Shown: one piece after another, positions 5,912-64,000 of the stretch
How the letters are laid out: every line of letters starts with the position of its first letter
Position numbering within the stretch: position 1 is the first letter of the stretch
NCBI RefSeq assembly: GCF_000374045.1
Contig: NZ_KB893317.1
Coordinates: 124,001 to 188,000 of the forward strand
Source: Segetibacter koreensis DSM 18137
GTDB lineage: Bacteria; Bacteroidota; Bacteroidia; Chitinophagales; Chitinophagaceae
DNA: 64,000 bases
Reading direction: 5' to 3'
Notes under the pieces: model-generated
What the model was told of the DNA's origin: nothing
The model's input: only the letters and a program-made list of their open reading frames with translations
Databases searched by the model: none
Made by a program: the position numbers and the translations under genes

Positions 5912-6607
5912 ATGCTGACAAATAAGGCAACTATATTATTTGCAGAAGACGATACTAGCCTTGCATTTATGGTAAAGGATGCATTGGAAGAAGAAGGTTA
6001 TAAAGTTGTGCATTGCTCAGATGGTCAAACTGCTATTGATACTTTTGATAAAGATAAATTTGATATTTGTTTACTTGACATAATGATGCCTTATAAAGAT
6101 GGCTATACTGTAGCAAAAAAAATCAGGCAACAGACGGATGTAATGCCTGTGCTTTTTCTGAGTACAAAAAGCCGTGAAGAGGATCGGCTAAAGGGTTATG
6201 ATACCGGAGCTGATGACTATATAGCAAAACCCTTTAGTATGCCGGAGCTATTAAAAAAAATAGAAGTGTTTTTGCGGCGAACCAAAAAGTTACATTCAAA
6301 ACCAGCGGCAGATTATAATATAGGAAAAATTGTATTTTCTCCAACTCATTTAAAAATAATTACACCGTCAGAAACTTACAACATTACCGCAAAGGAAACC
6401 GACTTATTAAAGTTTTTATGTGAAAATCAAAATAAGGTTTTAAAGAGAGAAGAAGTATTATTAAACGTTTGGGGAAAAGATGATTTTTTTGTTGGCAGAA
6501 GCATGGATGTATACATGACCCGGCTGCGAAAGTACCTTAGATCCGAACCGGCTATAACGATTGAAACGATACATGGAATAGGATTTCGCTTCAATATTGT
6601 GCAATAA
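5912..6607 (+). CDS. OmpR/PhoB-family response regulator
   Basis: A 231-residue receiver plus winged-helix regulator. The receiver has the acidic pair (FAEDD), the phosphorylated Asp56 in DICLLDIMMP, the switch Ser/Thr (FLSTKS) and the Lys in YIAKPF. The C-terminal half is a Trans_reg_C DNA-binding domain (ITAKETDLLKFL, VWGKDDFFVGRSMDVYMTRLRKYL). I chose the ATG at 5912; a 12-codon longer frame from 5876 overlaps the kinase and adds MNCRHNKKQDNC, which is not part of the receiver fold. It is the partner of the kinase just upstream and the likely reader of the TTAACC direct repeats at 4318 and 4543. Confidence 0.94.
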   Translation: MLTNKATILFAEDDTSLAFMVKDALEEEGYKVVHCSDGQTAIDTFDKDKFDICLLDIMMPYKDGYTVAKKIRQQTDVMPVLFLSTKSREEDRLKGYDTGADDYIAKPFSMPELLKKIEVFLRRTKKLHSKPAADYNIGKIVFSPTHLKIITPSETYNITAKETDLLKFLCENQNKVLKREEVLLNVWGKDDFFVGRSMDVYMTRLRKYLRSEPAITIETIHGIGFRFNIVQ

Positions 6608-48210: not shown

Positions 48211-48281
48211 TTGCCCGACATGGATTCGAACCACGACAAACAGTACCAAAAACTGTCGTACTACCGTTATACTATCGGGCA
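48211..48281 (-). tRNA. tRNA-Gln (anticodon TTG)
   Basis: A 71-nt cloverleaf: acceptor TGCCCGA/TCGGGCA, D stem GTAT/GTAC, anticodon stem ACAGT/ACTGT with loop TTTTGGT, T arm CGTGG-TTCGAAT-CCATG and discriminator A. CCA is not encoded. Confidence 0.95.
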
Positions 48282-48523: not shown

Positions 48524-50083
48524 TTAAAACGCTTTTAATAACTCCAAAAGCTGATATTGAAAAAATAATTGAAGTTTAGCCTGGAGATATTTTGAAGTTG
48601 AAGTGTTTAAAATGTCCCTGGCAGCTAACAATTCAACTGAACTTATTTGGCCAAGCCTGTACTTTTCTTTGTATAAATTGTACGATAATTTGTTTTCTTC
48701 CCAAGCCGATAAAATTGCAGTAAATTTTTGCTTAGCTCCATTGAAATCATTAATTATTTGAAGTGTGTTTGTCGCAATAGTATTTTTTGCATCCTGCATT
48801 GCAAGTTCTGCATTGGAAATGTTTATCTTTTCTTTTTTTACCTTGTTTGCATTTTGCATTTGCGAAAAAATAGGAATACTAAGACTTATGTATATGTTCT
48901 GGCCGAGATTATCATTTAATTGCGTTTTTAACGGTATTTTCCCGCCATTGGTATCTTGTTCCCCAATGTTGTAATTTGATACAAGATTACCACCGACAGA
49001 CAGGGAAGGGTAAAAACTGCTTTTTGCTATTTTTTCACCTAAATGTGCTGCCTGTACATCCATCTCAGCTTGCTTCATTGCAGGATGGGATATTAAGATA
49101 TCTTCTAAATACTTCTCCGGAGAAATGTTGGCGGTAATTATTTTTGATAAAGTAGTTGTGTCAATAGGGGCTATCTCAAATTTTTCTGAATAGGGAAAAT
49201 TTAATAATTGCCTAAGATCCTGCAAGGCCGACAATGAGTCATTTTGTATGGAAACCAAATCGGCCTGTTCAGTATTGAGGCGGGCATTAAAGGTGTAAAA
49301 TTCATATTTACTCAGCCTGCCTACGTTTATTTTCTCCTTAACTACCTCTAATTCTTTTGTCGTACTTTGTATATTATTTCTTTGGACACTCAATTCTTCT
49401 TTGCCTAACAACAACCGGGCATAGGTTAGTGTGATATTAGTTAGTACTTCAAGTTCTGCACTTTTTCTTGCATACTCTGCCGACCTGATAAGATAAGCAC
49501 TTTGCTTGATAGTATTTATCTTGTTAAAACCTGAAAAAAGCTGCAATTGCAAGCTGAGCGCCGTGGAGCCTCCACTAAATCTTTGGTTTACAAAAGTGTT
49601 AGTAACCGGATCAATGTTTTTGCCAAAAGAAATAAAATGGCCGAGATCATAAGACAAAGAGGGTAATAAATTATATTGAGCGGTTTTGCGGTCTATTTGA
49701 TTTGTATTAATAGCATTTTGTGCTTGTTTTAAACCAATATTTCTTGCCCGGGCAAGGTTGTAGCAATCGGATAAAGTGTAAGGCCCATTTTTACGAACTC
49801 CACTATTTTCGGGTTCTTCTTCTAACGTTGTTTTTTCAATTGTCGTCGACTTATTTTTTTCTGAATTATTTATATTTCCTCCTCTTATTTGCCCTGATGC
49901 AGAAAAAATAAAAGGATGAACTCCTATAATTGTAATAAGAATAGCATTTGAAAAAAAATGTGCAGATCTTTCTCTTTTCATAAGGCCCTGTTTATTGATC
50001 GCCGATCTTATAGAAATCTTTAGCCTGAAAATTTGTATTACCCCGTTTATTTTTTGAGGCATCTTACTTTGCTCAAACCTCAC
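48524..50083 (-). CDS. TolC-family outer-membrane efflux protein of the RiPP-like cluster
   Basis: The frame is 519 residues; a start at 49981 (MKRERSAHFFSNAILITIIG, then a site after SASGQ) gives a proper signal peptide and 485 residues. The long start would overlap the HlyD gene by 11 bp and puts 34 basic residues before the signal. The two-repeat TolC pattern is visible: LSDCYNLARARNIGLKQAQN with NLLPSLSYDLGHFISFG, and later HPAMKQAEMDVQAAHLGEKIAKSSFYPSLSVGGNL. It forms the outer-membrane duct for the peptide exported by the C39-ABC protein through HlyD. Last gene of the cluster. Confidence 0.88.
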   Translation of the reverse strand: MRFEQSKMPQKINGVIQIFRLKISIRSAINKQGLMKRERSAHFFSNAILITIIGVHPFIFSASGQIRGGNINNSEKNKSTTIEKTTLEEEPENSGVRKNGPYTLSDCYNLARARNIGLKQAQNAINTNQIDRKTAQYNLLPSLSYDLGHFISFGKNIDPVTNTFVNQRFSGGSTALSLQLQLFSGFNKINTIKQSAYLIRSAEYARKSAELEVLTNITLTYARLLLGKEELSVQRNNIQSTTKELEVVKEKINVGRLSKYEFYTFNARLNTEQADLVSIQNDSLSALQDLRQLLNFPYSEKFEIAPIDTTTLSKIITANISPEKYLEDILISHPAMKQAEMDVQAAHLGEKIAKSSFYPSLSVGGNLVSNYNIGEQDTNGGKIPLKTQLNDNLGQNIYISLSIPIFSQMQNANKVKKEKINISNAELAMQDAKNTIATNTLQIINDFNGAKQKFTAILSAWEENKLSYNLYKEKYRLGQISSVELLAARDILNTSTSKYLQAKLQLFFQYQLLELLKAF

Positions 50084-51293
50084 CTACGCGTTTAAAAAGT
50101 TTTTTTATAAAATATCTGTATAGCGGTAATCTGGCTACCACTATTTCACCATAAACGGAATAACCAGATTTTAATTGAAATCGATTTATTTCAGACAGTT
50201 CGACCAAGGCATAAAATTTATCGTTTTCCTTACGTTCGGCTACGTAGGACACCTTTCCATCTATAGGTCCATGTTCAAAATGCTGGTACGCATCGAGCCT
50301 TAGATGTGCGGGAAGGCCTGCTTTTACATAAGGCATATCTTTTTCAGGAATTATAACTTTCGCGTAATATGCAATGGTGTAAGGTGCAATGCTTATAAGC
50401 AAATCGCCTTTATTGATTACATTGCTTGACTGTTTTGTATTGTAAACGAAATTGACAATGCCAGCATTTTTTGCAATAACATTTTGCTCATTTAATTCTG
50501 TTTCTATTTTATGCAACATCTCTTTTGCCTGTATCAACTGGCTTTCGTATTCGTTTTTTGCCTGTATCAATGCCTGTGCATTTTCGTCTAACTGAACCTT
50601 CTCGAGCTGAAGGGAATTTTGCTCTTTGGTAAAATTATTATAAACCAGATTCTTTTCGGAAGCCTGTTTTATACGCTGATTCTGAATATTGCTAAAGCTT
50701 TCTTTTAGTGTTGAATTAGCTTCTTTCGTCGTGTTAAACTCATATTTGCTAAGCATATCTTTTTTATATAAAATGGAGTCTCCAATATATTTTTCGTTAG
50801 CAAGCGACAACCGTTCTTTTTGTGAGGCATATTGCTGATCCAGGTTTTGCATGTCGTTTACCAGACTGTTTATATCTAACTGATATTTCCTTGCTGCGAT
50901 ATTGCCTGTGCGATCTATCATTACTTTTTTCCTTTGTAATGCATCTTGAAGAACAGCAATTGATTTTATTTTTTTTTCAAGGAAAATTATTTCTGTTTTT
51001 TTTGTCGCATGCTGCTCAAGGTAATCGAGGTTTTGCATTACCAGTAATGTGTCACCTGCCTTTACCTGTTTTCCTTCCTTTACGAAAATTTTTATAACCT
51101 GGGCTTCAAAAGGAGCTTTATAATCTGCCTGGGGATTGGATGACACAATTTCTCCGGTGCTGACCGTTACGGTTTCATTTATATACAGGACAAATACCAG
51201 CACTATTATAGTTGTCGCGATTAAAACGAGCAATCTGAAAAACCATATAGTGAAGTTATACTCCTTGTAGTTGTAGTTGTTCAATGCTTCCAT
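50073..51293 (-). CDS. HlyD-family periplasmic adaptor
   Basis: A 406-residue membrane-fusion protein. One N-terminal membrane span (about 15-40, FFRLLVLIATTIIVLVFVLYI) is followed by a biotinyl-lipoyl-like half (APFEAQVIKIFVKEGKQVKAGDTLLVMQN). A long coiled coil comes next (about 90-245), then the second lipoyl half (NVIAKNAGIVNFVYNTKQSSNVINKGDLLISI) and a beta-barrel domain. It joins the ABC exporter in the inner membrane to TolC. The start overlaps the end of the exporter gene by 38 bp, showing tight translational coupling. Confidence 0.93.
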   Translation of the reverse strand: MEALNNYNYKEYNFTIWFFRLLVLIATTIIVLVFVLYINETVTVSTGEIVSSNPQADYKAPFEAQVIKIFVKEGKQVKAGDTLLVMQNLDYLEQHATKKTEIIFLEKKIKSIAVLQDALQRKKVMIDRTGNIAARKYQLDINSLVNDMQNLDQQYASQKERLSLANEKYIGDSILYKKDMLSKYEFNTTKEANSTLKESFSNIQNQRIKQASEKNLVYNNFTKEQNSLQLEKVQLDENAQALIQAKNEYESQLIQAKEMLHKIETELNEQNVIAKNAGIVNFVYNTKQSSNVINKGDLLISIAPYTIAYYAKVIIPEKDMPYVKAGLPAHLRLDAYQHFEHGPIDGKVSYVAERKENDKFYALVELSEINRFQLKSGYSVYGEIVVARLPLYRYFIKKLFKRVGEV

Positions 51294-53679
51294 TATGCAT
51301 CATTAAGGTTTTTGAAAATTGTAAATACTGCAATGGCTCATGAGAAATTACTATAAAAGACCGGTCATTAATAGTGTTTAAATACAACTCAATCTTTTCT
51401 TTCGATTCTTTATCTATACCCGATAAGGTCTCATCTAATATAATCAATTGTGCAGACGACAACAACGCCCGCATCATAAGAATTTTCTTTCTCTGGCCGG
51501 TTGACAGATTTCTGCCTTGCTCGGTAATTATAAAATCAAGTCCTTCAGGTTGATCTGCTATAAATTCGTAAAATCCTATTTCTTTAGCCAGCGACAAAAT
51601 ATCTTCGATGCTATCTGCATAATTAAATGCTATGTTATAGCCAATAGTATCGTTGAATAGTATATCCTCGTTGCTAACAAGTAATATTTTTTTCCTTAGT
51701 GAAGACGGGTTATAAAAAGTATGCTTTTCATTGTTGATAAGTATGCTGCCAGAGTCTGGATTATATAACAACGACAAAACTTTACAAAACGTGCTTTTGC
51801 CGGCGCCATTGTTTCCTTCCAGGAGTATTTTATCGCCCTTGTTTATTAAGATATTTAGATTAGAAAAAACAGGTTTTTGAGGAATATAATGAAAAGCAAC
51901 GTCTTTAAATTCAATGCTTTCAAGATCAAAAGACCTTATCTTACTATGTGTCGGAGAGCCTTCTGCTTTATCTTGTGCTTGTTCAAAATAAAAATAACGA
52001 TTTAGAATTATTGCATTTTCCTGCAGGTCAAGGTTCTCGTCGAGAAAGCTACTGACAGATGAAAATACCTGGGCAGACAAGGCTATAAAAGTAATTATCT
52101 GGCCAATGGAAATTGTCCGGCTGGTAATAGCAGTCAGCGATAGAAATACCATTATGAGTATGCTGGCTACGATAATAATAAAACTAATAACGGCAGAATT
52201 TACAAGGCTCACATATTTAACTCTTCGCTGTATAGCTAAAATGCTTTTAATTCTCGCTGATAATCGTTGCATAATTAAACCTTCCAGCCGAAATGATTTA
52301 ATGACCTGCAGGCCGTCGATATTCTCAAATACTGATGAGAATAAACTTGCTTTTTCCATAAACCTTCGCTTTTCGTTTTCCCTGATGAAGGGAGTTATCA
52401 CGTAAAACCAAACTATAAAAAGCGTAAGAATAGCTACTACAATTAATGTGATTTTCCAATTGATTATAAATAATATAGCTAGAGAATATATTGCGACAAA
52501 AGCATTGATAAGTATACCGGTAAAAAAACGGATGAAAAAGGTTTTGAGTGCAAGACTATCTTTAATCCTTTCAGAAAGATCTCCTTTGCTGAAAGTGTGA
52601 ATATAACGAATGGAAAATGTATTGAGTTTTTCGATGAAGGAAGTAAGAAAAAAATTGTCTAAAATATTTGCCAGGTGAATGGAAACAAAACTTTTATATA
52701 AAGATAAAATAAGGTTGAATACTTTAAAAAGCCCCAGACCTATCGCAAAGAGAACAAGCATATTTACATTGTAGCTCGGAAGAATATTATCAATAAGAAT
52801 TTGGCTGCTGAAAATAGTTACCTGCCCTATTAACGCTGCGAAAATAGCGGTACCAATATAAATGCCCCACAGCTTATGATACGGCTTCATTTCGCTTACC
52901 AGCCTTCTATATGCGCTTACTGGTTTTGCGGGGATAGGGTTATTGCCGGCTATTGTAGCAACTTCAGCATTTCTCCTTACCGTTAATACTACCGGAGCTG
53001 TAATCCGTAGTTTTGCTCCGCTTAGTTTCAGCGTTCTAAATTGTTTGGGAAGAGTATTCAGGTTCTGGTTAAACAATAAGTCATTCAAAAAGTTTTTTTC
53101 CGCTTCTTTGCTTGCAAAACCAAAGTTTTCCTGAACGTATGAAAAATAGGTGAGCTTATTAATTACATCAGCTTTATCATAACCCTGTACTCTTTCAACG
53201 TCAATACCAAAAGGCGAAAGTTCGTCGTTGATAATCTGCTGCAACAACTGGCTATTGCTTACATAATCATAATTAGCTGTCGCGGTATGAGAATTATTAA
53301 TTAATTCCATCAAAGTCCAGCGCTCATGTCGTCCCAGCGCCGGGTCAAGTACCTCAAGCTTTTTTTTGTGAATTCCTTTTATGACCACATAATGCTCACC
53401 CTGGCTGTTTTTAACAGGCAAAATACATGGAAGAAATTTCTTTAATTTTTCAGGATTAGATTTAAGGCTATTAAGATCAAGAAGATTAAATTCTGTAATA
53501 AAACTTTCCTTAGTAAAAAAGTCTCTTATATCCTGTAAACTCGATCCGCTTTCGTTTAAGTAAATATTTTCTTCAATATACTGTCTGTTGACATGAATGT
53601 TGTGCAAATTGTAAATAATTTTTGCAGCACTTATGCCACAGTCGTTTTGCTTTAGTTGTTGATCAATTTCTTTATGCAT
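51256..53679 (-). CDS. C39 peptidase-ABC exporter (PCAT)
   Basis: An 807-residue bifunctional exporter. The N-terminal C39 cysteine protease has Cys14 in QNDCGISAAKIIY, His96 in GEHYVVIKG and Asp112 in LDPALG, the complete triad that cuts leader peptides after Gly-Gly. An unusual linker of about 130 residues follows, then six membrane helices (about 270-560) and an ABC ATPase: Walker A LEGNNGAGKSTFCK, signature NLSTGQRKK, Walker B LIILDETLSG, H-loop VISHEP. It matures and exports the GG-leader peptide encoded at 55078-55284. It overlaps the kinase gene by 8 bp and HlyD by 38 bp. Confidence 0.95.
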   Translation of the reverse strand: MHKEIDQQLKQNDCGISAAKIIYNLHNIHVNRQYIEENIYLNESGSSLQDIRDFFTKESFITEFNLLDLNSLKSNPEKLKKFLPCILPVKNSQGEHYVVIKGIHKKKLEVLDPALGRHERWTLMELINNSHTATANYDYVSNSQLLQQIINDELSPFGIDVERVQGYDKADVINKLTYFSYVQENFGFASKEAEKNFLNDLLFNQNLNTLPKQFRTLKLSGAKLRITAPVVLTVRRNAEVATIAGNNPIPAKPVSAYRRLVSEMKPYHKLWGIYIGTAIFAALIGQVTIFSSQILIDNILPSYNVNMLVLFAIGLGLFKVFNLILSLYKSFVSIHLANILDNFFLTSFIEKLNTFSIRYIHTFSKGDLSERIKDSLALKTFFIRFFTGILINAFVAIYSLAILFIINWKITLIVVAILTLFIVWFYVITPFIRENEKRRFMEKASLFSSVFENIDGLQVIKSFRLEGLIMQRLSARIKSILAIQRRVKYVSLVNSAVISFIIIVASILIMVFLSLTAITSRTISIGQIITFIALSAQVFSSVSSFLDENLDLQENAIILNRYFYFEQAQDKAEGSPTHSKIRSFDLESIEFKDVAFHYIPQKPVFSNLNILINKGDKILLEGNNGAGKSTFCKVLSLLYNPDSGSILINNEKHTFYNPSSLRKKILLVSNEDILFNDTIGYNIAFNYADSIEDILSLAKEIGFYEFIADQPEGLDFIITEQGRNLSTGQRKKILMMRALLSSAQLIILDETLSGIDKESKEKIELYLNTINDRSFIVISHEPLQYLQFSKTLMMHNGSIEQLQLQGV

Positions 53680-54982
53680 TCATTCGATTTACAAGCGTAC
53701 TTTTTTCTTTATATGCCCCTCTTTCAAAACTCACCAATATTTCTGTCGCGTTTTTAAATCTTTCAACCGGGTTTTTGGCAAGACATCTTTTTACAATATT
53801 TATTATCCAATGCGGTACGGGGTAGTTCAAAAATGTATAACGAGGAAAGGAAGCATCACTTATCTTAATATTTGTTGCGAGCTCTTCCCAAATAAATCCT
53901 TTAAATGGTGTTTTACCGTATAGTATCAGGTACATTAACAGGCCAATTTGGTATACATCAGAGTATAAGTCAGGCTTTTTGGTGTACTTATTAATTGTCG
54001 TAATATTTATCCGTTCCGGAGGCATATAAAAAATTACTCCGCCGAACTTTATCAATTCATTTTTTTCAATTTCTTCAACGTTTAGTGTTAATCCCATATC
54101 AATGATCTTAACACTGTTATCGTCAGTTATTAATATGTTAGATGAATGAATGTCGCCGTGTACCAGGTTGCTTTTATGCACCATTGAAAAGGCGCGAAGA
54201 ATATCTTCAATAATGCGAAAACAAATTGTTTTGTTTAGCGAAGGTGTTTCTGTTAAAAACCGGTGCAATGATTTTCCCTTAATGTATTCAAGTATAATAT
54301 AGGGATTTTCTCCCTGCATTTTATTAAAGAAATAAGCCCTGCACATAGCAGGTATATGTTTCACATTTTCAAGAAATTTAAATTCTCTTTCTAACATGCC
54401 CAGTTCATCCTTAAAAATAGTTTGATCAAACGTTTTATTTCGATTTAATAATTTTATTACAAATTCATTATTAGTACCTCTGTCCCGGGCCAGGTAAATT
54501 TCAATAAAACGCCTGTTTGAAATAACTTTTAAAATAGTAAAATTGCCCACGGATTCTCCTTCATTATATAATGAAGTATCCACTAGTATAGCTTCCTCAT
54601 AGTCTTCCGGTACCAATACTTTTCTTTTGCACAGAAAGTCAAAAAACGGAGAGCACGCTTGTTCTACTTCTGCACTGTCATTTTTTATATCTGCCTGTAT
54701 TTCCTGTAAGACTTCTGCTTTTGTTTTCGGAAAAGAAAATTTATCTATAAAATATTTTATAGTATCGTTAATTAAATATTCTCTGTCCCGCATTTCGTCA
54801 TATAATATATAATGCCCCTGTAGGTATTTATTTGGGATTTCCTCTTCGTCATCATTGGCAGAATATTCCTCCTCCTCTTGTTGTTCCGCCTCGTCGGACT
54901 CCTCCGTATCCTTTTCCCCGGTATCAGTATAATTTCCAATGTCGCTAATGGAGATATTTTTAGATAGCCTGAATTTTTCCAT
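53672..54982 (-). CDS. PqqD/RRE-like domain fused to a Ser/Thr protein kinase
   Basis: A 436-residue cytoplasmic protein. Residues 20-50 are a very acidic linker (TEESDEAEQQEEEE). Residues about 55-125 fit the PqqD-like RiPP recognition element: strand pair HYILYDEMRDREYLIN, then helices YFIDKFSFPKTKAEVLQEI and a last helix ending FFDFLCKRKVLV. Residues about 145-425 are a eukaryotic-type kinase with an intact active site: Lys177 (FVIKLL), catalytic loop HGDIHSSN with Asp277 and Asn282, and the metal-binding Asp295 in IIDMG. It lies between the GG-leader precursor and the C39 exporter, overlapping the latter by 8 bp. I infer that it binds the leader and phosphorylates the Ser/Thr-rich core. 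No lyase or cyclase domain is present. Confidence 0.85.
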   Translation of the reverse strand: MEKFRLSKNISISDIGNYTDTGEKDTEESDEAEQQEEEEYSANDDEEEIPNKYLQGHYILYDEMRDREYLINDTIKYFIDKFSFPKTKAEVLQEIQADIKNDSAEVEQACSPFFDFLCKRKVLVPEDYEEAILVDTSLYNEGESVGNFTILKVISNRRFIEIYLARDRGTNNEFVIKLLNRNKTFDQTIFKDELGMLEREFKFLENVKHIPAMCRAYFFNKMQGENPYIILEYIKGKSLHRFLTETPSLNKTICFRIIEDILRAFSMVHKSNLVHGDIHSSNILITDDNSVKIIDMGLTLNVEEIEKNELIKFGGVIFYMPPERINITTINKYTKKPDLYSDVYQIGLLMYLILYGKTPFKGFIWEELATNIKISDASFPRYTFLNYPVPHWIINIVKRCLAKNPVERFKNATEILVSFERGAYKEKSTLVNRMNA

Positions 54983-55002
54983 CGTGCAGTTTTTTTATTT
55001 AA

Positions 55003-55032
55003 AAGGATTGAAAGGTTACCCTTTCAATCCTT
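55003..55032 (-). terminator. Attenuator-like hairpin between precursor and kinase genes
   Basis: A 13-bp perfect stem (55003-55015 with 55020-55032) with a 4-nt loop lies after the precursor ORF and 20 bp before the kinase ATG. On the minus strand only four T follow before A's, so read-through is likely. Such partial terminators give RiPP precursors higher expression than their enzymes. Confidence 0.7.
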
Positions 55033-55077
55033 CAATGAACACGCTGCTAACACTTAAACAACCCTCGGTTTTGATTA

Positions 55078-55284
55078 CTACCAACCATGCCAGCGGGTTG
55101 TGTAAGTATCTCTGCCGCTTGTGCAGTAGCTACTTTTGCCTGAGTGGCATGAGCGTGATTTGTGGCTGGTTCGACAACGATTTTTTCTTCTTCTTCTATG
55201 TCCTTTTCCGTAGCGATGACCACCGACAATTTCGTTCAGTGATTCTGTTTTCAATTCTGTCAGAAGTTTTTCTAACGTAATCAT
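55078..55284 (-). CDS. GG-leader precursor peptide (RiPP/bacteriocin-like)
   Basis: A 68-residue peptide. The leader MITLEKLLTELKTESLNEIV ends in Gly-Gly at residue 22, the site used by C39 peptidases; Leu and Glu/Ile sit at the conserved -7 and -4 positions (LNEIVGG). The core of 46 residues is strongly basic (HRRRRKNR), has 12 Ser/Thr, three Cys and a C-terminal TTRWHGW. It is the first gene of the cluster kinase-PCAT-HlyD-TolC. I infer that the core is phosphorylated by the RRE-kinase, then cleaved and exported. A second open frame (+1, 55047-55229) overlaps the core and also looks protein-like, so a frameshift cannot be excluded. Confidence 0.75.
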   Translation of the reverse strand: MITLEKLLTELKTESLNEIVGGHRYGKGHRRRRKNRCRTSHKSRSCHSGKSSYCTSGRDTYTTRWHGW

Positions 55285-56339: not shown

Positions 56340-59300
56340 ATGTATAAAACGATCTTCCCTTTACATCCCGCACAACGCGATATTTATATGGGCCAGGAGA
56401 TAAACTTTGAAAGTCCGCACAATAACATTGGGTTTTATGTAAAGCTTAAGGGGGCATTGAATAAGGAGAAGTTGCGTGAAGCTGTTAATTCATCTCCCAA
56501 AATATTTGATGCTTTTAGGCTGAGGTTTGATCTGCAGGATGTAAATCTCATTTGCTATTTTGATGAGAACTATAATAGATTGGAATTGGCGGAAATGGAT
56601 TTCAGTGGACGAAAAAATCCTGAGCATGAGGCTAAGAGTTGGATGCAAAACGGATTTAATGTTCCGTTTATAATACGGAAGGAAAACTTGCTTTTCGAAC
56701 CTGTTTTAATTAAAATTGCTTCAGATGAATATTGGTTGTTCTTTAAATTTCATCAGATAATTATTGACAGTTATGGTTTAGCTATGTGGTTAAATTACGT
56801 TTCCAAAAAGTATACATCATTACTTATAGCTGATGATCTTAAATTTCATTATGGTTCTTACGTAGATGAAGCTATAAAGGCATCAGAATTTCTTAATTCA
56901 CCTGACTATGAATTAGATGGAAAGTATTGGAAAAAGAAAATAAATGAACAGCCAGAGGCTTTACTAAGAAAAAACAACAGGTTTATTACAAAGCCAACAA
57001 CAAAAAGTGGCAATTACTATCTTAAGATAAGTCCAGAGCAAAGAAAAATAATTGATAAAGTAATAAATGTTACTCAATCAAATTTAGATCAATTGACAAT
57101 TGCTGCACTGCTAATCTATTTTGGAAAAACTTCAGGTCAATCAAATATTGTTTTTGGCATAAATGTTCCTAAAAGAAGTTCAGTTGAACTGCAGAATATT
57201 GTAGGAAAGCTTTCAGGTGTTTTACCTTTTAAGGGTGTTTTTGAAGAAGATATAAAATTAGCAGATTTATTAAAAGACATTGCAATTTCACGAAAAGAAG
57301 ATTGCGCTCATCAAAATTACCTGGTTAGTGATTTAATAGAGTTCCTTAAAATAGATACTTCTAAAAGTTCTTTGTATGATGTAACGGTCGATAATGTTTT
57401 ATTTAATTTTCAAATAGATTTTGGCACAGAGATTCAATCAACAATATTTTGGTTGCAAAGTGAGTATGAAAAGGTCCCTTTACAAATATGCTGGAGAGAT
57501 TATGGAAATCAACAACCTTTAGAGTTGGGGCTTCATTATAACTACGAGTATTTTATTTCAGAAGAGATAGATTTATTCGCCAAAAGAATAATATTTATTT
57601 TAGAACAATTTCCGTTCGCCCTTAATACAAATATTGGTAATATCAATATACTGCCTTCCCAAGAGCAGCAGTTGCTTGGCCGGTTCAACGGTGCTACAGA
57701 AGCTTATCCTATAGACAAGAATATTGTAGACTTATTCGAACAGCAGGTAGAACTTACTCCTGATAATATCGCTTTGGTCTTAGAAGATCAGCACTTAACC
57801 TATAGCGAACTTAATGAACGATCTAACCAGTTAGGGCATTACTTACGAAGCAAAGGAGTAAAAGAAGACACACTGGTGCCGGTATGCATAGAACGCTCCG
57901 TTGAGATGATAGTTGCCATGCTCGGCATTCTGAAAGCCGGAGGAGCATATGTGCCTATCGATCCGGAGTATCCTGAAGATCGAATCAGCTATATGCTCCA
58001 AGACATCGCTGCCTCGGTAGTAGTAAGCAGTAAAAAGAGCCGTTTGAAGCTACCCTTGGCAGAGGACAGCAAAGTAGTGGAAGTAGACGCAGACCGGGGT
58101 AACATAAGCCTTTCTTCAAAAGACAAGGTGCCAACATCTCTTCGTTCACACCACCTTGCTTATGTCATCTATACCTCTGGTTCTACAGGTCGCCCCAAAG
58201 GAATAATGGTTGAACACAGAAGCCTGGTAGCTTCTACGTTATCAAGGAAACGGTACTATAAAACTTTCGGATCTGTGTTTTTAATACCTTCTTTTTCTTT
58301 TGACTCATCAGTCGCCGTAATATTCGGTACATTATTAACAGGTGGTCGTTTAGTCTTATGTGAAGATCAATTAATAAAGGATATCAATTTTGTCAGAGGG
58401 TTATTAAGAAATGTGGAAACAATTTTATGTGTGCCTTCTTATTATAAGCTTCTGTTGGAAGAGGGAGTAGTTGAAAATTCATCTCTTTCAAAAGTAATAG
58501 TCGCTGGTGAAGATCTTAATAGGCAAATCGTGTCTCTTCATTTTGATAAAACAAATAATGTTTCTTTATTTAATGAGTATGGTCCTACAGAATACACTAT
58601 ATGGGCAACGGTGGCCAAAATAGAGGCTGTTACTGGTAAGGTAACCATTGGGGCTCCTATAGATAATACGAGCATTTATATTGTAGGTAAGGGACTTTGC
58701 CTAACCCCTATAGGAGTCGCTGGAGAGATATGTATCGCAGGCGAAGGCTTGGCTCGAGGCTATTTAAATAATGAGGAACTGAGCAGGCAGAAGTTTGTTC
58801 CTAATCCTTTCGTTAAGGAAGCCGGAGTTTTAATGTATAAAACAGGGGATATGGGAAAGTGGTTAGGCGATGGGAGCATTCAATTTTTAGGCAGAAAGGA
58901 TGAACAGGTAAAAATTAGGGGTTACAGAATTGAGTTAGGCGAATTGGAGAGTGTGCTACAGCAATATGACCAGGTAAGGCAGGGGGTAGTACTGGCCCGG
59001 GAGGATAAAGAAGGTAGGAAACGACTGGTAGGATATGTCGTTCCCAAGAAAGGTAGCCTGGACCGGGAAGTACTGATGCGTTATTTAAGCAGCAAGCTAC
59101 CTCAGTACATGATACCGGGTCTTTGGGTAGAAATAAAGAAGTTGCCTTTAACCCCAAATGGCAAGATTGATCGGAAGGCACTCCCTGACGTGGATGCAAG
59201 TGAAGAGGCGCTAAGTCAGCAGTACCAGGGGCCACGAAATGTAGTGGAAGCAAAACTATGTGTAATTTGGCAGGACTTGTTGGAAGTGGAAAGGGTCGGC

Positions 59301-62300
59301 ATTCATGACAACTTTTTTGAACTGGGCGGTGATTCTTTATTAGCCATGCGACTCATATCATATATTGGCAAGGAGCTGGAAGTGGAAGTTATTGTTAAAG
59401 ACCTGTTTGTTCATTGTACGATAGCAGCTTTATCGGCTCATATCGAAAGGCAAAACAAACAACTCTTACTTCCAGTCATTGAAAGACGGGCAAGAGAGGA
59501 GCGCATTCCTTTATCATTTAGCCAGGAGCGTTTGTGGTTCATTGACAGGCTGGAAGGTAGTGTGCAGTATCATATACCGCAGGTGCTGCGCGTAAAAGGC
59601 AAGTTGAATGCGGATGCCCTCGAAGCGTCTTTTAAAGGAGTTATGCATCGTCATGAAGTACTTAGAACGGTCATTAAGGAAGATGAAGGACGGGGGTGGC
59701 AATACATCAAGGAAGAGGATGGGTGGCGGTTGGAAATTGTATACGGTTCCCTGTACAATGAAGATACCGACGCTTTACAATCTTACATTCAACAATTAAT
59801 TGTACAGCCGTTTAACTTGGCGGAGGATTATATGCTGCGGGCACAGTTGATTAAGCTGGAGGAAGAAGATCAGGTACTGGTGATCACGATCCACCACATT
59901 GTCACGGACGGTTGGTCAACGCCTCTTTTTGTTAAAGAGCTTACAGAATTATATGCCGCTTATGAACAGGGACGTCCGCCTAATTTGCCATCCCTGCCCA
60001 TTCAGTATGCCGATTATGCTATATGGCAGCGCCAGTATTTGCACGGAGCAGTACTGGAGGCAAAACTGAGCTACTGGAAAGAGAAGCTGCAAGAGGTACA
60101 GGTGTTGCAGTTGCCGACTGATTTTGTACGGCCAGCGGTACAAAGCACCAAAGGAGCAGTAGAGGGCTTTCTCATTGATAAACAACTAGGTGAACAGCTC
60201 AAAACCTTAAGCAAACAACAGGGTACAACCCTGTTTATGACCCTGCTTGCAGCTTTTAAAGTCTTATTATTTAGATATAGCGGACAAGAAGATATATGTG
60301 TAGGGAGCCCGACTGCCAGCAGGCAACAACAGGAAGTGGAAGGCTTAATAGGCTTTTTTGCCAATACATTGGCCTTACGCGATAAAGTCAAGGGAGATGC
60401 ATCCTTTGTAGAGCTGTTGCAAACGGTAAAGGCAACAACTCTTGATGCCTATCAACACCAGGAAGTACCCTTTGAAAAGGTGGTGGACGAAGTGACCAGG
60501 GAAAGGGACGTGAGTCGTAACCCTCTTTTTCAGGTGATGTTTGCTTCACAGAATACTCGGGATGTGCCGGAGCTGCATTTAGGAAACACTGAAATATCTA
60601 CGGAAGTGTTTGCCGATATGACAGCGAAGTTCGATTTGACATTATTTGTAGAAGAAACTCGAAGAGGCTTGCAAAGCGGGTTTGAGTACTGCACCGAGCT
60701 ATTTGAAGCACGAACCATTGGTCGAATGGCCGACCATTTTCAGAGTCTGCTCCAGTCCATAGTGACTGCACCGCATCAGAAGATCGCAGCATTACCAATG
60801 CTCACAGAGGCCGAGCGGCAACAACTCCTGGAGGAGTTTAACCCAAGGCCTGTAGCTTATCCCTTAGACAGAACTATTGTTGATTTATTTAAACAGCAGG
60901 TAGAAAGTACTCCGGATAATGTTGCCGTGATTTTTCAGGAGCAGCGCTTAAGCTACAGAGAACTGAATGAAAGAAGCAATCAGCTTGCACATTATTTGAG
61001 AAGCAAGGGGGTGAAGGAAGAATGCCTTGTACCAATATGCATTGAGAGAAGTCACGAAATGCTTGTAGGATTATTAGGTATCTTAAAATCAGGCGCTGCT
61101 TACGTTCCGATTGATCCGGAATATCCGCAGGAAAGAATAACGTTCATGCTGGAAGATATCAAAGCCAACATAGTGGTAGCCGGCAAAGCAGGTAAATTGA
61201 AGTTGAAAATCACTGACGAACTCGATATTATAGACTTATTCAAAGATTGGCCGATCATTGAAAAAATGCCTCGGACGAACCTTCAAACTAATTTTAATAA
61301 CAATAACCTGGCTTATGTGGTTTACACATCAGGTTCAACAGGCCAACCTAAGGGGGTAATGATTGAACATGGTTCATTGCTAAATTATGTACTTGTATTT
61401 AAAGACTATTTTTCAATAACTCAAAACGATTTTGTAATACAACAATATTCAATATCTTTTGATACTAGTATGGAAGAGATATACCCCGCTTTGATAAGTG
61501 GTGGCTGCGTTTGCATCATAAAAGACGGAAGGGATGTTGAAAAAATAAAACAATATATTGAAGATGGGCTCGCCACTGTTTTAAGCGCCGCGCCCATGAC
61601 AATCGAGTGGTTAAACAACAACTTATCAGGTACAGGCCAATTAAGATATGTGATCAACGGGGGAGATGTCCTGTATCCTTCCTCGATTGATCATTTATTT
61701 AAAAAAGTTAACATCGTAAACGGTTACGGTCCTAGCGAAACAACCATCGGGGTTACCTATAACAAGGTTAAGAGTATTTCGGAGGCATCATTAATAGGTA
61801 AACCCATAGCTAATGTTCGTATATATATCCTTGGGCACCAAAACCAATTACAAGCTATAGGTATCCCTGGTGAGATACATATAGGCGGTTTACAGGTATC
61901 GCGTGGGTATTTAAACCGGCCTGAACTAACACATAAGAAATTTGTTCAAGATCCTTTTAACCCCCTATCAGGCTGCCGAATGTATAAAACAGGGGATATG
62001 GGAAAGTGGTTAGGCGATGGGAGCATTCAATTTTTAGGCAGAAAGGATGAACAGGTAAAAATTAGGGGTTACAGAATTGAGTTAGGCGAATTGGAGAGTG
62101 TGCTACAGCAATATGACCAGGTAAGGCAGGGGGTAGTACTGGCCCGGGAGGATAAAGAAGGTAGGAAACGACTGGTAGGATATATCGTTCCCACGAAAGG
62201 TAGCCTGGACCGGGAAGCACTGATTCTGTATTTAAGCAGCAAGCTACCTCAGTACATGGTACCGGGTCTTTGGGTAGAAATAGAGAAGTTGCCTTTAACC

Positions 62301-64000
62301 CCAAATGGCAAGATTGATCGGAAGGCACTCCCTGACGTGGATGCAAGTGAAGAGGCGCTAAGTAAGCAGTACCAGGGGCCACGAAATGAAGTGGAAGCAA
62401 AACTGTGTGTCATTTGGCAGGACTTGTTGGAAGTGGAAAGGGTCGGCATTCATGACAACTTCTTTGAACTGGGCGGAGATTCCATTATCACTATTCAGAT
62501 CAGCAGCAGAGCTAAGCGTGCAGGATATGAGATACGACCAAGAGACATTTTCTTGTACCAGGACATAAGTCGTTTATCAGCAGCAATAATTAATAATTCC
62601 ACTGCTTCTGCTTTTCAGGCAGAGCAGGGAGAGTTGTTAGGTGAGTGTAGTCTTTTACCTATTCAGCAATGGTATCTCGAAAAGGAAAATGATAATCCAC
62701 TGATATCTTACTATAACCAAAGCATGCTTGTGGGTATTCATAAAGCTGTCACATTGGTAGAACTCACAGAAGCACTTCGTATAGTTATTATAAAGCATGA
62801 TGTGTTACGTTTCGTTTACAAGCACAGCGTATCAGGATGGACGCAGATCTATGGAAGTAGTCATTTAACGGTAACAGAATGCGATTTTCGTAGTGAACCA
62901 ATTGCCTCTTTATCATCAACAATATCAAACAAAGCAAGCGATTATCAAGCCGGTTTAGATATAGAGAAAGGGGATCTGTTAAGGGTGGTCCTATTCCAAA
63001 CTCCGAACGAGCAGCCGGACAATCGTTTATTATTGGTTATTCATCATTTAGCAGTAGATGGAGTATCATGGCGTGTACTACTGGAAGATCTGGAAGTATC
63101 GATAAACAGTATAAGGAATAGCGAGAGTTTAAATTTAGGGCGCAAAAGTAGTTCTTACCGTGATTGGTATAACGCTTTAAAGGAGTATTCAAACCACCCT
63201 CGTTTGTTATCGCAGCAAAGCCGCTGGCAAACAGTGGTAGAGAATGCAAAACCTCTACCAACGGACTTGATCTCTGACCAAGAAGTTAAGTTTCGAGATT
63301 GGGATGTAGTTACAGTGAAACTAAACGTAGTTCAAACCCAATTGTTATTACAGCAGGTTCCACTAACTTATCATACTGAAATTAATGATGTGTTACTGGC
63401 GGCCTTGAGCAAGGTGCTTGTTACATGGACTGGGAACAACAAAATATTGATAGGCTTGGAGGGGCATGGCAGAGAGGAGTATATTGGTGAAGGAATCGAT
63501 TTAAGTCGGACTGTGGGCTGGTTCACGACGATTTATCCTCTATTGCTTGAATCTGTATCAGAAGAATCAGAGGGAAGTTTGCTTAAAGCCACTAAAGAGC
63601 AGCTAAGGCAGATACCGGATAAGGGATTAGGGTATGGTGTGCTCAAGTATTTTAATAAATTAAAGGAGTTAAATATAGAAGCAGGCAAGGATCCGTGGGA
63701 TATAGTATTTAATTATCTGGGACAGTTTGATAACGTCATAAGCCAGAGTAATTTGTTTACGAGGTGTGAAGAGTCTCCTGGCAAAGAAATTAGCGACTCT
63801 CACCGTATATCCGAAAAGATTGCAGTAAATAGTCTAATATCAGGAGGTGAACTCAAGCTTGATTGGGGCTACAGCAGGAAGCACTACCGAAAGGAGACAA
63901 TCGAGCAGTTAGGTCAATCCTACATTATTCAGCTGGAAGAGTTGATTAGACATTGCCTGAAACAGGGCGAAGAAGGATCGGCGTACACTCCATCAGACTA
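56340..64000 (+). CDS. Nonribosomal peptide synthetase, N-terminal 2553 residues (C-A-T-C-A-T-E; runs off the window)
   Basis: One unbroken frame from ATG at 56340 (MYKTIFPLHPAQRDIYMG). C1 about 1-430, with the active motif degenerate: H138-Q139-I-I-I-D143-S. A1 about 460-960 (YTSGSTGRPKG, YGPTEYT, YKTGD, NGKIDRKALP). T1 Ser999 in LGGDSLL. C2 about 1055-1490 with intact HHIVTDG (His1185, His1186). A2 about 1505-2010 (YTSGSTGQPKG, YGPSETT). T2 Ser2048 in LGGDSII. E about 2110-2550 with HHLAVDGVSWR (His2235, His2236). By hand alignment to GrsA the pocket residues read D-S-A-C-I-A-E-I-W for A1 and D-T-E-S-I-G-G-I-G for A2; I cannot assign substrates. The epimerase implies a D-residue at position 2. 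More modules should follow. Confidence 0.96.
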   Translation, partial: MYKTIFPLHPAQRDIYMGQEINFESPHNNIGFYVKLKGALNKEKLREAVNSSPKIFDAFRLRFDLQDVNLICYFDENYNRLELAEMDFSGRKNPEHEAKSWMQNGFNVPFIIRKENLLFEPVLIKIASDEYWLFFKFHQIIIDSYGLAMWLNYVSKKYTSLLIADDLKFHYGSYVDEAIKASEFLNSPDYELDGKYWKKKINEQPEALLRKNNRFITKPTTKSGNYYLKISPEQRKIIDKVINVTQSNLDQLTIAALLIYFGKTSGQSNIVFGINVPKRSSVELQNIVGKLSGVLPFKGVFEEDIKLADLLKDIAISRKEDCAHQNYLVSDLIEFLKIDTSKSSLYDVTVDNVLFNFQIDFGTEIQSTIFWLQSEYEKVPLQICWRDYGNQQPLELGLHYNYEYFISEEIDLFAKRIIFILEQFPFALNTNIGNINILPSQEQQLLGRFNGATEAYPIDKNIVDLFEQQVELTPDNIALVLEDQHLTYSELNERSNQLGHYLRSKGVKEDTLVPVCIERSVEMIVAMLGILKAGGAYVPIDPEYPEDRISYMLQDIAASVVVSSKKSRLKLPLAEDSKVVEVDADRGNISLSSKDKVPTSLRSHHLAYVIYTSGSTGRPKGIMVEHRSLVASTLSRKRYYKTFGSVFLIPSFSFDSSVAVIFGTLLTGGRLVLCEDQLIKDINFVRGLLRNVETILCVPSYYKLLLEEGVVENSSLSKVIVAGEDLNRQIVSLHFDKTNNVSLFNEYGPTEYTIWATVAKIEAVTGKVTIGAPIDNTSIYIVGKGLCLTPIGVAGEICIAGEGLARGYLNNEELSRQKFVPNPFVKEAGVLMYKTGDMGKWLGDGSIQFLGRKDEQVKIRGYRIELGELESVLQQYDQVRQGVVLAREDKEGRKRLVGYVVPKKGSLDREVLMRYLSSKLPQYMIPGLWVEIKKLPLTPNGKIDRKALPDVDASEEALSQQYQGPRNVVEAKLCVIWQDLLEVERVGIHDNFFELGGDSLLAMRLISYIGKELEVEVIVKDLFVHCTIAALSAHIERQNKQLLLPVIERRAREERIPLSFSQERLWFIDRLEGSVQYHIPQVLRVKGKLNADALEASFKGVMHRHEVLRTVIKEDEGRGWQYIKEEDGWRLEIVYGSLYNEDTDALQSYIQQLIVQPFNLAEDYMLRAQLIKLEEEDQVLVITIHHIVTDGWSTPLFVKELTELYAAYEQGRPPNLPSLPIQYADYAIWQRQYLHGAVLEAKLSYWKEKLQEVQVLQLPTDFVRPAVQSTKGAVEGFLIDKQLGEQLKTLSKQQGTTLFMTLLAAFKVLLFRYSGQEDICVGSPTASRQQQEVEGLIGFFANTLALRDKVKGDASFVELLQTVKATTLDAYQHQEVPFEKVVDEVTRERDVSRNPLFQVMFASQNTRDVPELHLGNTEISTEVFADMTAKFDLTLFVEETRRGLQSGFEYCTELFEARTIGRMADHFQSLLQSIVTAPHQKIAALPMLTEAERQQLLEEFNPRPVAYPLDRTIVDLFKQQVESTPDNVAVIFQEQRLSYRELNERSNQLAHYLRSKGVKEECLVPICIERSHEMLVGLLGILKSGAAYVPIDPEYPQERITFMLEDIKANIVVAGKAGKLKLKITDELDIIDLFKDWPIIEKMPRTNLQTNFNNNNLAYVVYTSGSTGQPKGVMIEHGSLLNYVLVFKDYFSITQNDFVIQQYSISFDTSMEEIYPALISGGCVCIIKDGRDVEKIKQYIEDGLATVLSAAPMTIEWLNNNLSGTGQLRYVINGGDVLYPSSIDHLFKKVNIVNGYGPSETTIGVTYNKVKSISEASLIGKPIANVRIYILGHQNQLQAIGIPGEIHIGGLQVSRGYLNRPELTHKKFVQDPFNPLSGCRMYKTGDMGKWLGDGSIQFLGRKDEQVKIRGYRIELGELESVLQQYDQVRQGVVLAREDKEGRKRLVGYIVPTKGSLDREALILYLSSKLPQYMVPGLWVEIEKLPLTPNGKIDRKALPDVDASEEALSKQYQGPRNEVEAKLCVIWQDLLEVERVGIHDNFFELGGDSIITIQISSRAKRAGYEIRPRDIFLYQDISRLSAAIINNSTASAFQAEQGELLGECSLLPIQQWYLEKENDNPLISYYNQSMLVGIHKAVTLVELTEALRIVIIKHDVLRFVYKHSVSGWTQIYGSSHLTVTECDFRSEPIASLSSTISNKASDYQAGLDIEKGDLLRVVLFQTPNEQPDNRLLLVIHHLAVDGVSWRVLLEDLEVSINSIRNSESLNLGRKSSSYRDWYNALKEYSNHPRLLSQQSRWQTVVENAKPLPTDLISDQEVKFRDWDVVTVKLNVVQTQLLLQQVPLTYHTEINDVLLAALSKVLVTWTGNNKILIGLEGHGREEYIGEGIDLSRTVGWFTTIYPLLLESVSEESEGSLLKATKEQLRQIPDKGLGYGVLKYFNKLKELNIEAGKDPWDIVFNYLGQFDNVISQSNLFTRCEESPGKEISDSHRISEKIAVNSLISGGELKLDWGYSRKHYRKETIEQLGQSYIIQLEELIRHCLKQGEEGSAYTPSD

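What the first reader, a model, noticed from the sequence alone, without database searches (positions are those of the whole stretch)
48524..55284. Candidate new RiPP class: RRE-Ser/Thr kinase fusion with GG-leader peptide and C39-ABC/HlyD/TolC export
Five genes read in one direction with overlaps of 8, 38 and up to 11 bp. Seen: a 68-residue GG-leader peptide with a basic core rich in Ser/Thr and Cys, a protein with a PqqD/RRE-like N-terminal domain and an intact eukaryotic-type kinase, and a full export line with a complete C39 triad. Known: RRE domains bind leader peptides; C39 exporters cut after GG; in LanKC/LanL enzymes a kinase domain phosphorylates core Ser/Thr before elimination. Inferred: here the kinase acts alone, without lyase or cyclase, so the product may be a phosphopeptide or may need an enzyme encoded elsewhere. 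I know of no described class built on an RRE joined to such a kinase.
Basis: partly seen in the sequence, partly recalled or inferred. Interest (0 to 1): 0.92.

Follow-up and report, generated by a model that had tools for sequence, protein, structure and literature searches.

The report
Secreted-peptide pathway with leader-binding protein kinase
A small bacterial operon appears to make a short peptide, tag its serines and threonines with phosphate using a kinase that carries its own peptide-grabbing domain, and then cut and export it; related operons in other bacterial families suggest a class of secreted phosphopeptides that I did not find described.

Summary
On the minus strand, 48524-55284, a GG-leader peptide is followed by an RRE-kinase, a C39-ABC exporter, HlyD and TolC. 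The RRE call is right: no profile sees it in the window protein alone, but 11 of 19 homologous N-terminal domains match Pfam PqqD (one above its cut-off), and the six best PDB fold matches of the modelled window domain are RRE-type proteins.

I found 23 loci with this RRE-kinase (window's family 7, Cyclobacteriaceae 6, Saprospiraceae 9, Aliikangiella 1). In 22 of 23 a GG/AG/KG-leader peptide lies upstream; 20 of 23 have the C39 exporter adjacent. Leaders are alike, cores diverge completely (KTKTKT, SSESSLSS, GHGKSKGHGKSS), and 13 of 23 are significantly Ser/Thr-rich; the window's is not. Nine loci also carry a phosphatase, from two families. Lanthionine cyclases occur in 2 of 22 host genomes, HopA1-type lyases in none.

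Best reading: a RiPP class, not found described, in which a leader-guided Hanks-type kinase phosphorylates Ser/Thr before C39 cleavage and export. The nearest published relative is the linear polyphosphorylated peptides of Bacillota (2026), which use an HprK-like kinase. Phosphate transfer and role are unproven.

The parts
55078..55284 (-). Precursor peptide, 68 aa; leader residues 1-22 (55219-55284, MITLEKLLTELKTESLNEIVGG), core residues 23-68 rich in Arg/Lys, 12 Ser/Thr, 3 Cys
   Evidence: a leader-type ORF stands upstream of the kinase in 22 of 23 loci; a leader profile from 7 Chitinophagaceae leaders gives as its 9 best hits such ORFs among 1872 small ORFs in 15 other loci, 6 of them with E below 1e-3
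55002..55033 (-). 14-pair hairpin (-20.1 kcal/mol) between precursor and kinase, attenuator-like
   Evidence: hairpins of -14 kcal/mol or better in 12 of 21 precursor-kinase gaps, reached by 8 of 840 dinucleotide shuffles, and by no hairpin as strong in 40 shuffles of any of those 12 gaps
53672..54982 (-). RRE-kinase fusion, 436 aa
   Evidence: 21 such kinases form one group against 52 other Bacteroidota kinases
54584..54835 (-). RRE (PqqD-like) domain, residues 50-133; a further strand is contributed by residues 10-14
53708..54553 (-). Hanks-type kinase domain, about residues 144-425; K177, E200, D277, N282, D295 intact; HGD loop, so non-RD type
51256..53679 (-). C39 peptidase-ABC exporter, 807 aa
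50073..51293 (-). HlyD-type periplasmic adaptor
48524..50083 (-). TolC-type outer membrane channel (start codon uncertain)

Best explanation
The operon makes a secreted phosphopeptide of a RiPP class that I did not find described. The N-terminal RRE of the kinase binds the conserved leader (RRE shown by homology and fold, binding not shown). The joined Hanks-type kinase then phosphorylates Ser/Thr of the low-complexity core, probably at several sites (inferred). The C39 domain cuts after the GG/AG/KG motif, and the ABC/HlyD/TolC line exports the phosphorylated core (homology; site and order inferred). A hairpin after the precursor gene would keep precursor in excess of enzyme (inferred). The product is a short phosphorylated peptide: mixed-charge where the core is basic, as in the window, and strongly anionic where it is SSE/SSx repeats. 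Its role is unknown; metal, mineral or surface binding, or signalling, are guesses.
For: RRE by profile and fold. Intact catalytic residues in 21 of 21 kinases, except the beta-3 Lys in 20 of 21. Leader-type peptide upstream in 22 of 23 loci, gap 57-139 nt in 19 of the 21 nearest-precursor gaps measured from the kinase starts I assumed. A leader profile from one family finds the upstream ORFs of others. Cores diverge, yet 13 of 23 reach 5% or better for Ser/Thr against 384-1442 pooled small-ORF ends. In three groups that I chose (11 of 23 precursors) aligned Ser/Thr stay Ser/Thr in 93, 88 and 78% of comparisons, other residues are identical in 47, 25 and 57%. Codons of the repeats vary (nine cores). 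Phosphatase genes lie near the system in 9 of 23 loci: PP2C in 6 of 6 Cyclobacteriaceae, calcineurin-like in L113, L118 and Aliikangiella L119. LANC_like in 2 of 22 genomes, HopA1 in 0 of 22.
Against: No phosphate transfer has been measured. Ten of 23 cores, the window's own among them, are not significantly Ser/Thr-rich by the pooled control (window, L034, L037, L039, L056, L111, L115, L118a, b, c); L111 and L118b have only 10%. The per-locus control gave 14 of 23, but with only 16 controls for the window and 4 for L115. High Ser/Thr content by itself inflates the retention figures. AG and KG before the presumed cleavage site are not the classic GG (motif recalled). The Gly-rich loop of the kinase is degenerate. 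In Aliikangiella the kinase has Arg for the beta-3 Lys and no clear family precursor. The window's genome holds one LanC on another contig. The window's RRE has no direct profile hit, and DUF4777 has the single best domain E-value (4.4e-05, L051, below its cut-off). 14 of 23 loci show no homologue of either phosphatase.
Confidence: 0.65

Rival explanations
1. Transient phosphorylation: the kinase phosphorylates the peptide inside the cell as self-protection or an export signal, and a phosphatase removes the phosphate, so the final product is an ordinary linear peptide.
For: Phosphatase genes near 9 of 23 loci, of two Pfam families. In Aliikangiella the phosphatase begins with a hydrophobic, membrane-anchor-like stretch (sequence). 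Cationic cores resemble antimicrobial peptides (recalled).
Against: 14 of 23 loci show no homologue of either phosphatase in the stretches examined. The PP2C shows no signal peptide by eye, so it would act in the cytosol before export. Poly-Ser cores are not obviously toxic (inference).
Confidence: 0.15
2. Phosphorylation is an intermediate: a lyase encoded elsewhere eliminates phosphate to dehydroamino acids, and where Cys is present (window core has 3) a cyclase in trans makes lanthionines.
For: Proteins of the same RRE-kinase layout with an added LANC_like domain exist. The window genome has a LanC on contig C46. 8 of 23 cores contain Cys.
Against: LANC_like in 2 of 22 host genomes (three of the 22 only 63-67% complete), HopA1 in 0 of 22. 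No hit of a LanC profile made from four fusions in 22 loci. 15 of 23 cores lack Cys. LanKC-, LanM- and LanB-type lyases were not searched by profile, and the HopA1 model may miss distant lyases.
Confidence: 0.09
3. The peptides are unmodified class II bacteriocin-like peptides; the RRE-kinase is a regulator that senses leader abundance and phosphorylates other proteins, such as the exporter.
For: C39/HlyD/TolC lines export unmodified peptides (recalled). The kinase domain scores best with a PknB-type model (PknB 123.5 bits, LanL 63.4, LanKC 61.3). Ten of 23 cores, the window's included, are not Ser/Thr-rich.
Against: An RRE on the kinase and Ser/Thr-rich cores in 13 of 23 precursors point to the peptide as substrate. 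No exporter-like sequence lies near kinase and peptide in L056 (one side cut short by the contig end), L111 and L117.
Confidence: 0.11

Closest known systems
Linear polyphosphorylated peptides, LPPs (Bacillota; PMC13381572, 2026; passages and Discussion read)
   Same: RRE-guided phosphorylation of a linear core, leader cleavage and ABC export; no macrolactam cyclase; biological role unknown
   Different: [quoted passage not shown] Here the RRE is fused to a Hanks-type kinase, the protease is the C39 domain, and many cores hold arrays of Ser/Thr.
Class III/IV lanthipeptide synthetases LanKC/LanL (PMC10604976, passages read)
   Same: Kinase domain that phosphorylates core Ser/Thr guided by a leader
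   Different: No lyase and no cyclase domain here. That paper states that class II-V lanthipeptide enzymes contain no identifiable RRE. The kinase here scores about twice as many bits with PknB as with LanKC/LanL models.
Phosphorylated lasso peptides (paeninodin type; as described in PMC13381572)
   Same: RRE plus kinase; phosphate on the peptide
   Different: HprK-like kinase acting on a lasso scaffold; no Hanks kinase, no GG/C39 export (the last recalled)
GG-leader/C39 PCAT peptide export in Bacteroidales (PMC10352776, passages read)
   Same: Leader motif, C39-ABC (PCAT), membrane fusion protein, outer membrane protein
   Different: The passages name rSAM, LanC, glycosyltransferase and aminotransferase enzymes; the three kinase mentions concern histidine kinases (one in a figure legend, one in the text, one in a reference)

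Membership tests
RiPP pathway (RRE-dependent) | Precursor gene with conserved leader next to modifying enzyme | tested here: met
   22 of 23 loci; leader profile test
RiPP pathway (RRE-dependent) | RRE/PqqD domain in the modifying enzyme | tested here: met
   Pfam PqqD in 11 of 19 domains, best 5.2e-05, one of 11 above the gathering score; fold of the window's own domain. Window protein itself: no profile hit
RiPP pathway (RRE-dependent) | Post-translationally modified product | not testable with these tools
   No mass spectrometry
Class III/IV lanthipeptide (LanKC/LanL) | Lyase and cyclase domains with the kinase | tested here: not met
   436-aa protein holds RRE and kinase only; no LanC-profile hit in the 22 loci searched. 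Score 63.4 and 61.3 bits against cut-offs 650 and 575
Class V lanthipeptide | HopA1-type lyase | tested here: not met
   PF17914 in 0 of 22 host genomes
Linear polyphosphorylated peptides (LPP) | HprK-like kinase and SpI-like protease | tested here: not met
   Kinase is Hanks-type; the protease in the operon is C39
Linear polyphosphorylated peptides (LPP) | Linear core bearing phosphates | not testable with these tools
   Works-like claim only
PCAT (C39-ABC) exporter line | C39 catalytic residues, ABC motifs, HlyD and TolC partners | tested here: met
   (Q, C, H, D invariant in 18 of 18)

The most novel reading that the evidence does not exclude
Bacteria in several families secrete short, ribosomally made, hyperphosphorylated low-complexity peptides, functional analogues of phosvitin, casein clusters or silaffins (recalled comparison), made by an RRE-guided Hanks kinase and exported by a C39 line; they act outside the cell as phosphate-rich polyelectrolytes that bind metal ions, mineral or cell surfaces.
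Probability: 0.3. Interest if true: 0.93.

Novelty: new variant of a known kind. Interest (0 to 1): 0.8.

Why it matters
If right, it adds a RiPP class in which a eukaryotic-type Ser/Thr kinase is steered by a built-in leader-binding domain and phosphate itself is the modification. It could give a programmable route to multiply phosphorylated peptides, since wholly different cores stand behind one kind of leader. It would show the kinase step known from lanthipeptide making used without elimination and cyclisation; fusions of the same RRE-kinase layout with a LanC domain also exist, at odds with the statement in PMC10604976 that class II-V lanthipeptide enzymes lack an identifiable RRE. What phosphorylated peptides do outside bacterial cells, open for LPPs and paeninodins (PMC13381572), becomes testable in strains whose records bear strain names (Ilyomonas limi, Cyclobacterium roseum, Lunatibacter salilacus).

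Tried and rejected
A single-sequence scan of genome contigs with the kinase found no relatives; the alignment-based scan did. A profile search over a 395-genome draw from the phylum is swamped by ordinary kinases: among its listed matches only the window's own starts near the model's beginning (position 16; the next lowest start is 63), but only the best four candidates per genome were scored and the list was cut, so it does not bound how common the system is. PDB sequence search with the RRE profile gave 23 weak matches, none named PqqD (best E 0.059). The plasmid search (3 records) gave no RRE-kinase of this kind, only a LanC-annotated relative and two PknB-type kinases. I considered and dropped: a class III/IV lanthipeptide system (no lyase or cyclase domain), a class V system (no HopA1), and a transport-only bacteriocin locus (kinase and peptide stay together in three loci where no exporter is near). 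The TPR-CHAT/lipoprotein/sigma module beside several loci was not made part of the core: the best own-genome match to the CHAT protein is 28% identical and on another contig. An NRPS-like gene starts about 1 kb away in the divergent direction and was not seen as part of the conserved set.
Full report
WHAT IS THERE. The window lies in a 6.1-Mb genome (G000). G328, labelled same genus, carries the same operon; its kinase contig (38149 bases) agrees in length and place with record JAOQAJ010000222.1, titled Segetibacter sp., a genus of Chitinophagaceae. A 14-pair hairpin (-20.1 kcal/mol) lies between peptide and kinase at 55002-55033. Hairpins of -14 kcal/mol or better sit in 12 of 21 such gaps; in each of these 12, none of 40 dinucleotide shuffles is as strong, and over all gaps 8 of 840 shuffles reach -14; the other 9 gaps show nothing beyond chance. 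An attenuator that leaves precursor in excess of enzyme is an inference.

IS THE N-TERMINUS AN RRE. The window protein alone matches nothing there. Of 19 homologous N-terminal domains, 11 match Pfam PqqD, best E 5.2e-05, one of the 11 above the gathering score (L113, 23.9 against 23.4 bits): all 9 Saprospiraceae-group domains, 1 of 4 Cyclobacteriaceae, 1 of 6 from the window's family. DUF4777 matches 5 of 19, with the single best E-value (4.4e-05, L051) but always below its cut-off. AlphaFold of the full protein (21 sequences) has pLDDT 86.3 and pTM 0.84, and shows strands 10-14, 57-62, 67-72, then helices 73-80, 88-99, 103-119, the bbb-aaa order that PMC12710340 (section 6 read) gives for RREs. 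The window's domain alone (pLDDT 86.3, pTM 0.64) retrieves from 350,542 PDB chains, as its six best matches, PqqD 3g2b, four TbiB1 chains solved with leader peptides, and 5why of a sactipeptide enzyme (that 5why carries an RRE is recalled). No match reaches E 0.001: E-values run from 0.083 to 2.0, TM-scores from 0.34 to 0.41, rmsd from 5.8 to 9.2. It is the identity of the six top matches that persuades. Residues 19-46 of the window protein are a low-confidence acidic insert (pLDDT under 50) that the 20 aligned homologues lack or have shorter.

IS THE KINASE ALIVE. E200, H275, D277, H279, N282, D295 and E323 are invariant in 21 of 21 homologues and the beta-3 Lys is present in 20 of 21 (Arg in Aliikangiella). 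The catalytic loop reads HGD rather than HRD, so it is a non-RD kinase (terminology recalled). The Gly-rich loop is degenerate. The best NCBIfam model is PknB (123.5 bits), against LanL 63.4 and LanKC 61.3. Foldseek's best match is PknB, E 2.3e-19.

RELATIVES. By the extent of the matches I count RRE-kinases in 7 of 394 genomes drawn from the window's family, 6 of 295 from the family of Lunatibacter (Cyclobacteriaceae), 8 of 248 from the family of a MAG titled Saprospiraceae (G1219 has two loci) and 1 of 197 from the order of Aliikangiella. Candidates scored per genome were capped, so these are lower bounds. In all 23 loci in 22 genomes: window, L034-L039, L047, L048, L055, L049, L051, L110, L056, L111-L118, L057/L119. 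L055 (near-identical to L048) and the broken L039 were left out of the kinase alignment, L055 also out of the precursor statistics. A maximum-likelihood tree of 77 kinase domains (one further row dropped) puts the 21 RRE-kinases in one group (97/86, 98% of bootstrap trees), four RRE-kinase-LanC fusions in another, and 52 other Bacteroidota kinases in a third. Without an outgroup it does not tell which two groups are closest, and L057 sits on a very long branch.

PRECURSORS. A GG/AG/KG-leader ORF precedes the kinase on the same strand in 22 of 23 loci, with a gap of 57-139 nt in 19 of the 21 nearest-precursor gaps measured (exceptions L113 at 316 and L118 at 172). A profile built only from the seven leaders of the window's family, run on 1872 small ORFs of 15 other loci, ranks nine such ORFs first, six with E below 1e-3 (five Cyclobacteriaceae, best 1.1e-10, and L117) and three at E 0.6-1.2. 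It missed the precursors of L112, L114, L115, L111, L056 and one of L118, found none in L057, and showed a fourth precursor in L118. The cores diverge completely between groups. Window's family: basic, in five of seven with Lys/Arg-Thr runs (KHGTKTKTQTKTKTKTKKQKSHISYY). Cyclobacteriaceae and some Saprospiraceae: Ser-rich with Glu (SSASSMSGESSVSSESSLSSVSSESSSSS). Others: GHGKSKGHGKSSGKSK, SNSNSASNSNSAS, SSSRSSSSHHSSSS. Ser/Thr makes up 10-73% of cores (the L112 core was mistyped there and is 72%). Against pooled ends of small ORFs, 13 of 23 reach 5% or better and 10 do not, the window's own (10.5%) among the latter. The earlier per-locus control gave 14 of 23, with few controls in places. In three chosen groups (11 of 23 precursors) Ser/Thr is kept as Ser/Thr in 208 of 224, 92 of 105 and 70 of 90 comparisons; other residues are identical in 46 of 98, 14 of 55 and 116 of 204; abundance of Ser/Thr inflates the first figures. 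Codons in the repeats vary (nine cores printed), so the pattern seems kept at protein level.

PARTNERS. The C39-ABC lies next to the kinase in 20 of 23 loci (18 intact, L055, and a broken one in L039, whose C39 and ABC parts are both found); no exporter-like sequence was found in the stretches held for L056, L111 and L117. Catalytic Q, C, H and D are invariant in 18 of 18. Phosphatases stand near 9 of 23 loci: PP2C after TolC in 6 of 6 Cyclobacteriaceae (Pfam for L047, L051, L110; the others by BLAST), a calcineurin-like enzyme in L113 and L118 and in Aliikangiella L119 (30% identity to that of L118 over 273 columns). Two phosphatase families near one kinase family suggest that phosphate matters here (inference). 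LANC_like occurs in 2 of 22 host genomes, one of them the window's own (contig C46), HopA1 in 0 of 22; three of these genomes are only 63-67% complete.

HOW IT MOST LIKELY WORKS. RRE grips the leader; the tethered kinase phosphorylates Ser/Thr of a core whose other residues hardly matter; C39 cuts after the leader motif; the product leaves through ABC/HlyD/TolC. Shown: gene content, RRE fold, catalytic residues, recurring leader. Inferred: leader binding, phosphate transfer, multiplicity, timing, function.

KNOWN OR NOT. PMC13381572 (passages; Discussion) describes linear polyphosphorylated peptides with a discrete RRE and HprK-like kinase; this is the closest kind and it makes the phosphopeptide idea credible. 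PMC10604976 (passages) says class II-V lanthipeptide enzymes lack an identifiable RRE. PMC12710340 (passages and section 6) reports 1,158 Pfam domains retrieved by RRE-Finder; the search listing counts no occurrence of 'kinase' in its text or in that of PMC7470986 (passages of the latter). Their supplements could not be read and may list Pkinase fusions. Nine literature searches over open-access PMC showed no RRE-Hanks-kinase class in what was listed; several listings were cut at 20, and subscription papers are out of reach.

VERDICT. I file it as a candidate RiPP class, a new variant of a known kind, with phosphate chemistry still to be proven.

Noticed in passing
L040:1339-3696, L041:263-2620, L042:9563-11929, L043:8461-10833 (minus); L121:7872-10274: RRE-kinase-LANC_like fusions of 785-790 aa in four genomes of the window's family, 4 of 4 matching LANC_like and Pkinase, N-terminus related to the RRE here (hhalign 97.1%, E 7e-11); a LanC-annotated relative lies on a Paenibacillus peoriae plasmid. 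In L040, L042 and L043 a protein of 381-399 aa lies just upstream; the two scanned (L042, L043) have no significant Pfam match. L043 also has a CTSCTHVT-repeat ORF at 12029-12373, a likely lanthipeptide precursor. RRE-bearing lanthipeptide synthetases may be undescribed.
   Followed up: partly
L036-L039, L049, L051, L110, L116: Homologues of a TPR-CHAT protein (domains called in L036) stand near 8 RRE-kinase loci and of a lipoprotein-like protein near 7; four loci of the window's family add a sigma-70-type factor and a 258-aa protein. Possibly regulation or a surface partner of the peptide.
   Followed up: partly
L118:5280-7337 (minus): Four precursor genes with closely alike leaders and very different cores, one with SSSSRSH repeats.
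   Followed up: no
L119:4114-15930: Aliikangiella locus with HlyD, C39-ABC, RRE-kinase, two JmjC_2 proteins, a calcineurin-like phosphatase and, on the other strand, a tryptophan halogenase; possible precursor at 6011-6163, unlike the others.
   Followed up: partly
window 56340-63998 (+): Start of a large NRPS-like gene (at least 2553 aa, open at the window end; named by eye, not domain-scanned), divergent from the operon with about 1 kb between.
   Followed up: no
window 48211-48281 (-): tRNA gene downstream of the operon.
   Followed up: no
L046 (same place as L035): Public record titled Williamsia sp. (an actinomycete name, recalled) whose contig agrees in length and place with one of G077, placed in the window's own family; probably a mislabelled MAG.
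   Followed up: no
L039:9216-12829: In this MAG the RRE-kinase and the C39-ABC are each broken by frame changes; assembly error or decay, not resolved and left as is.
   Followed up: no
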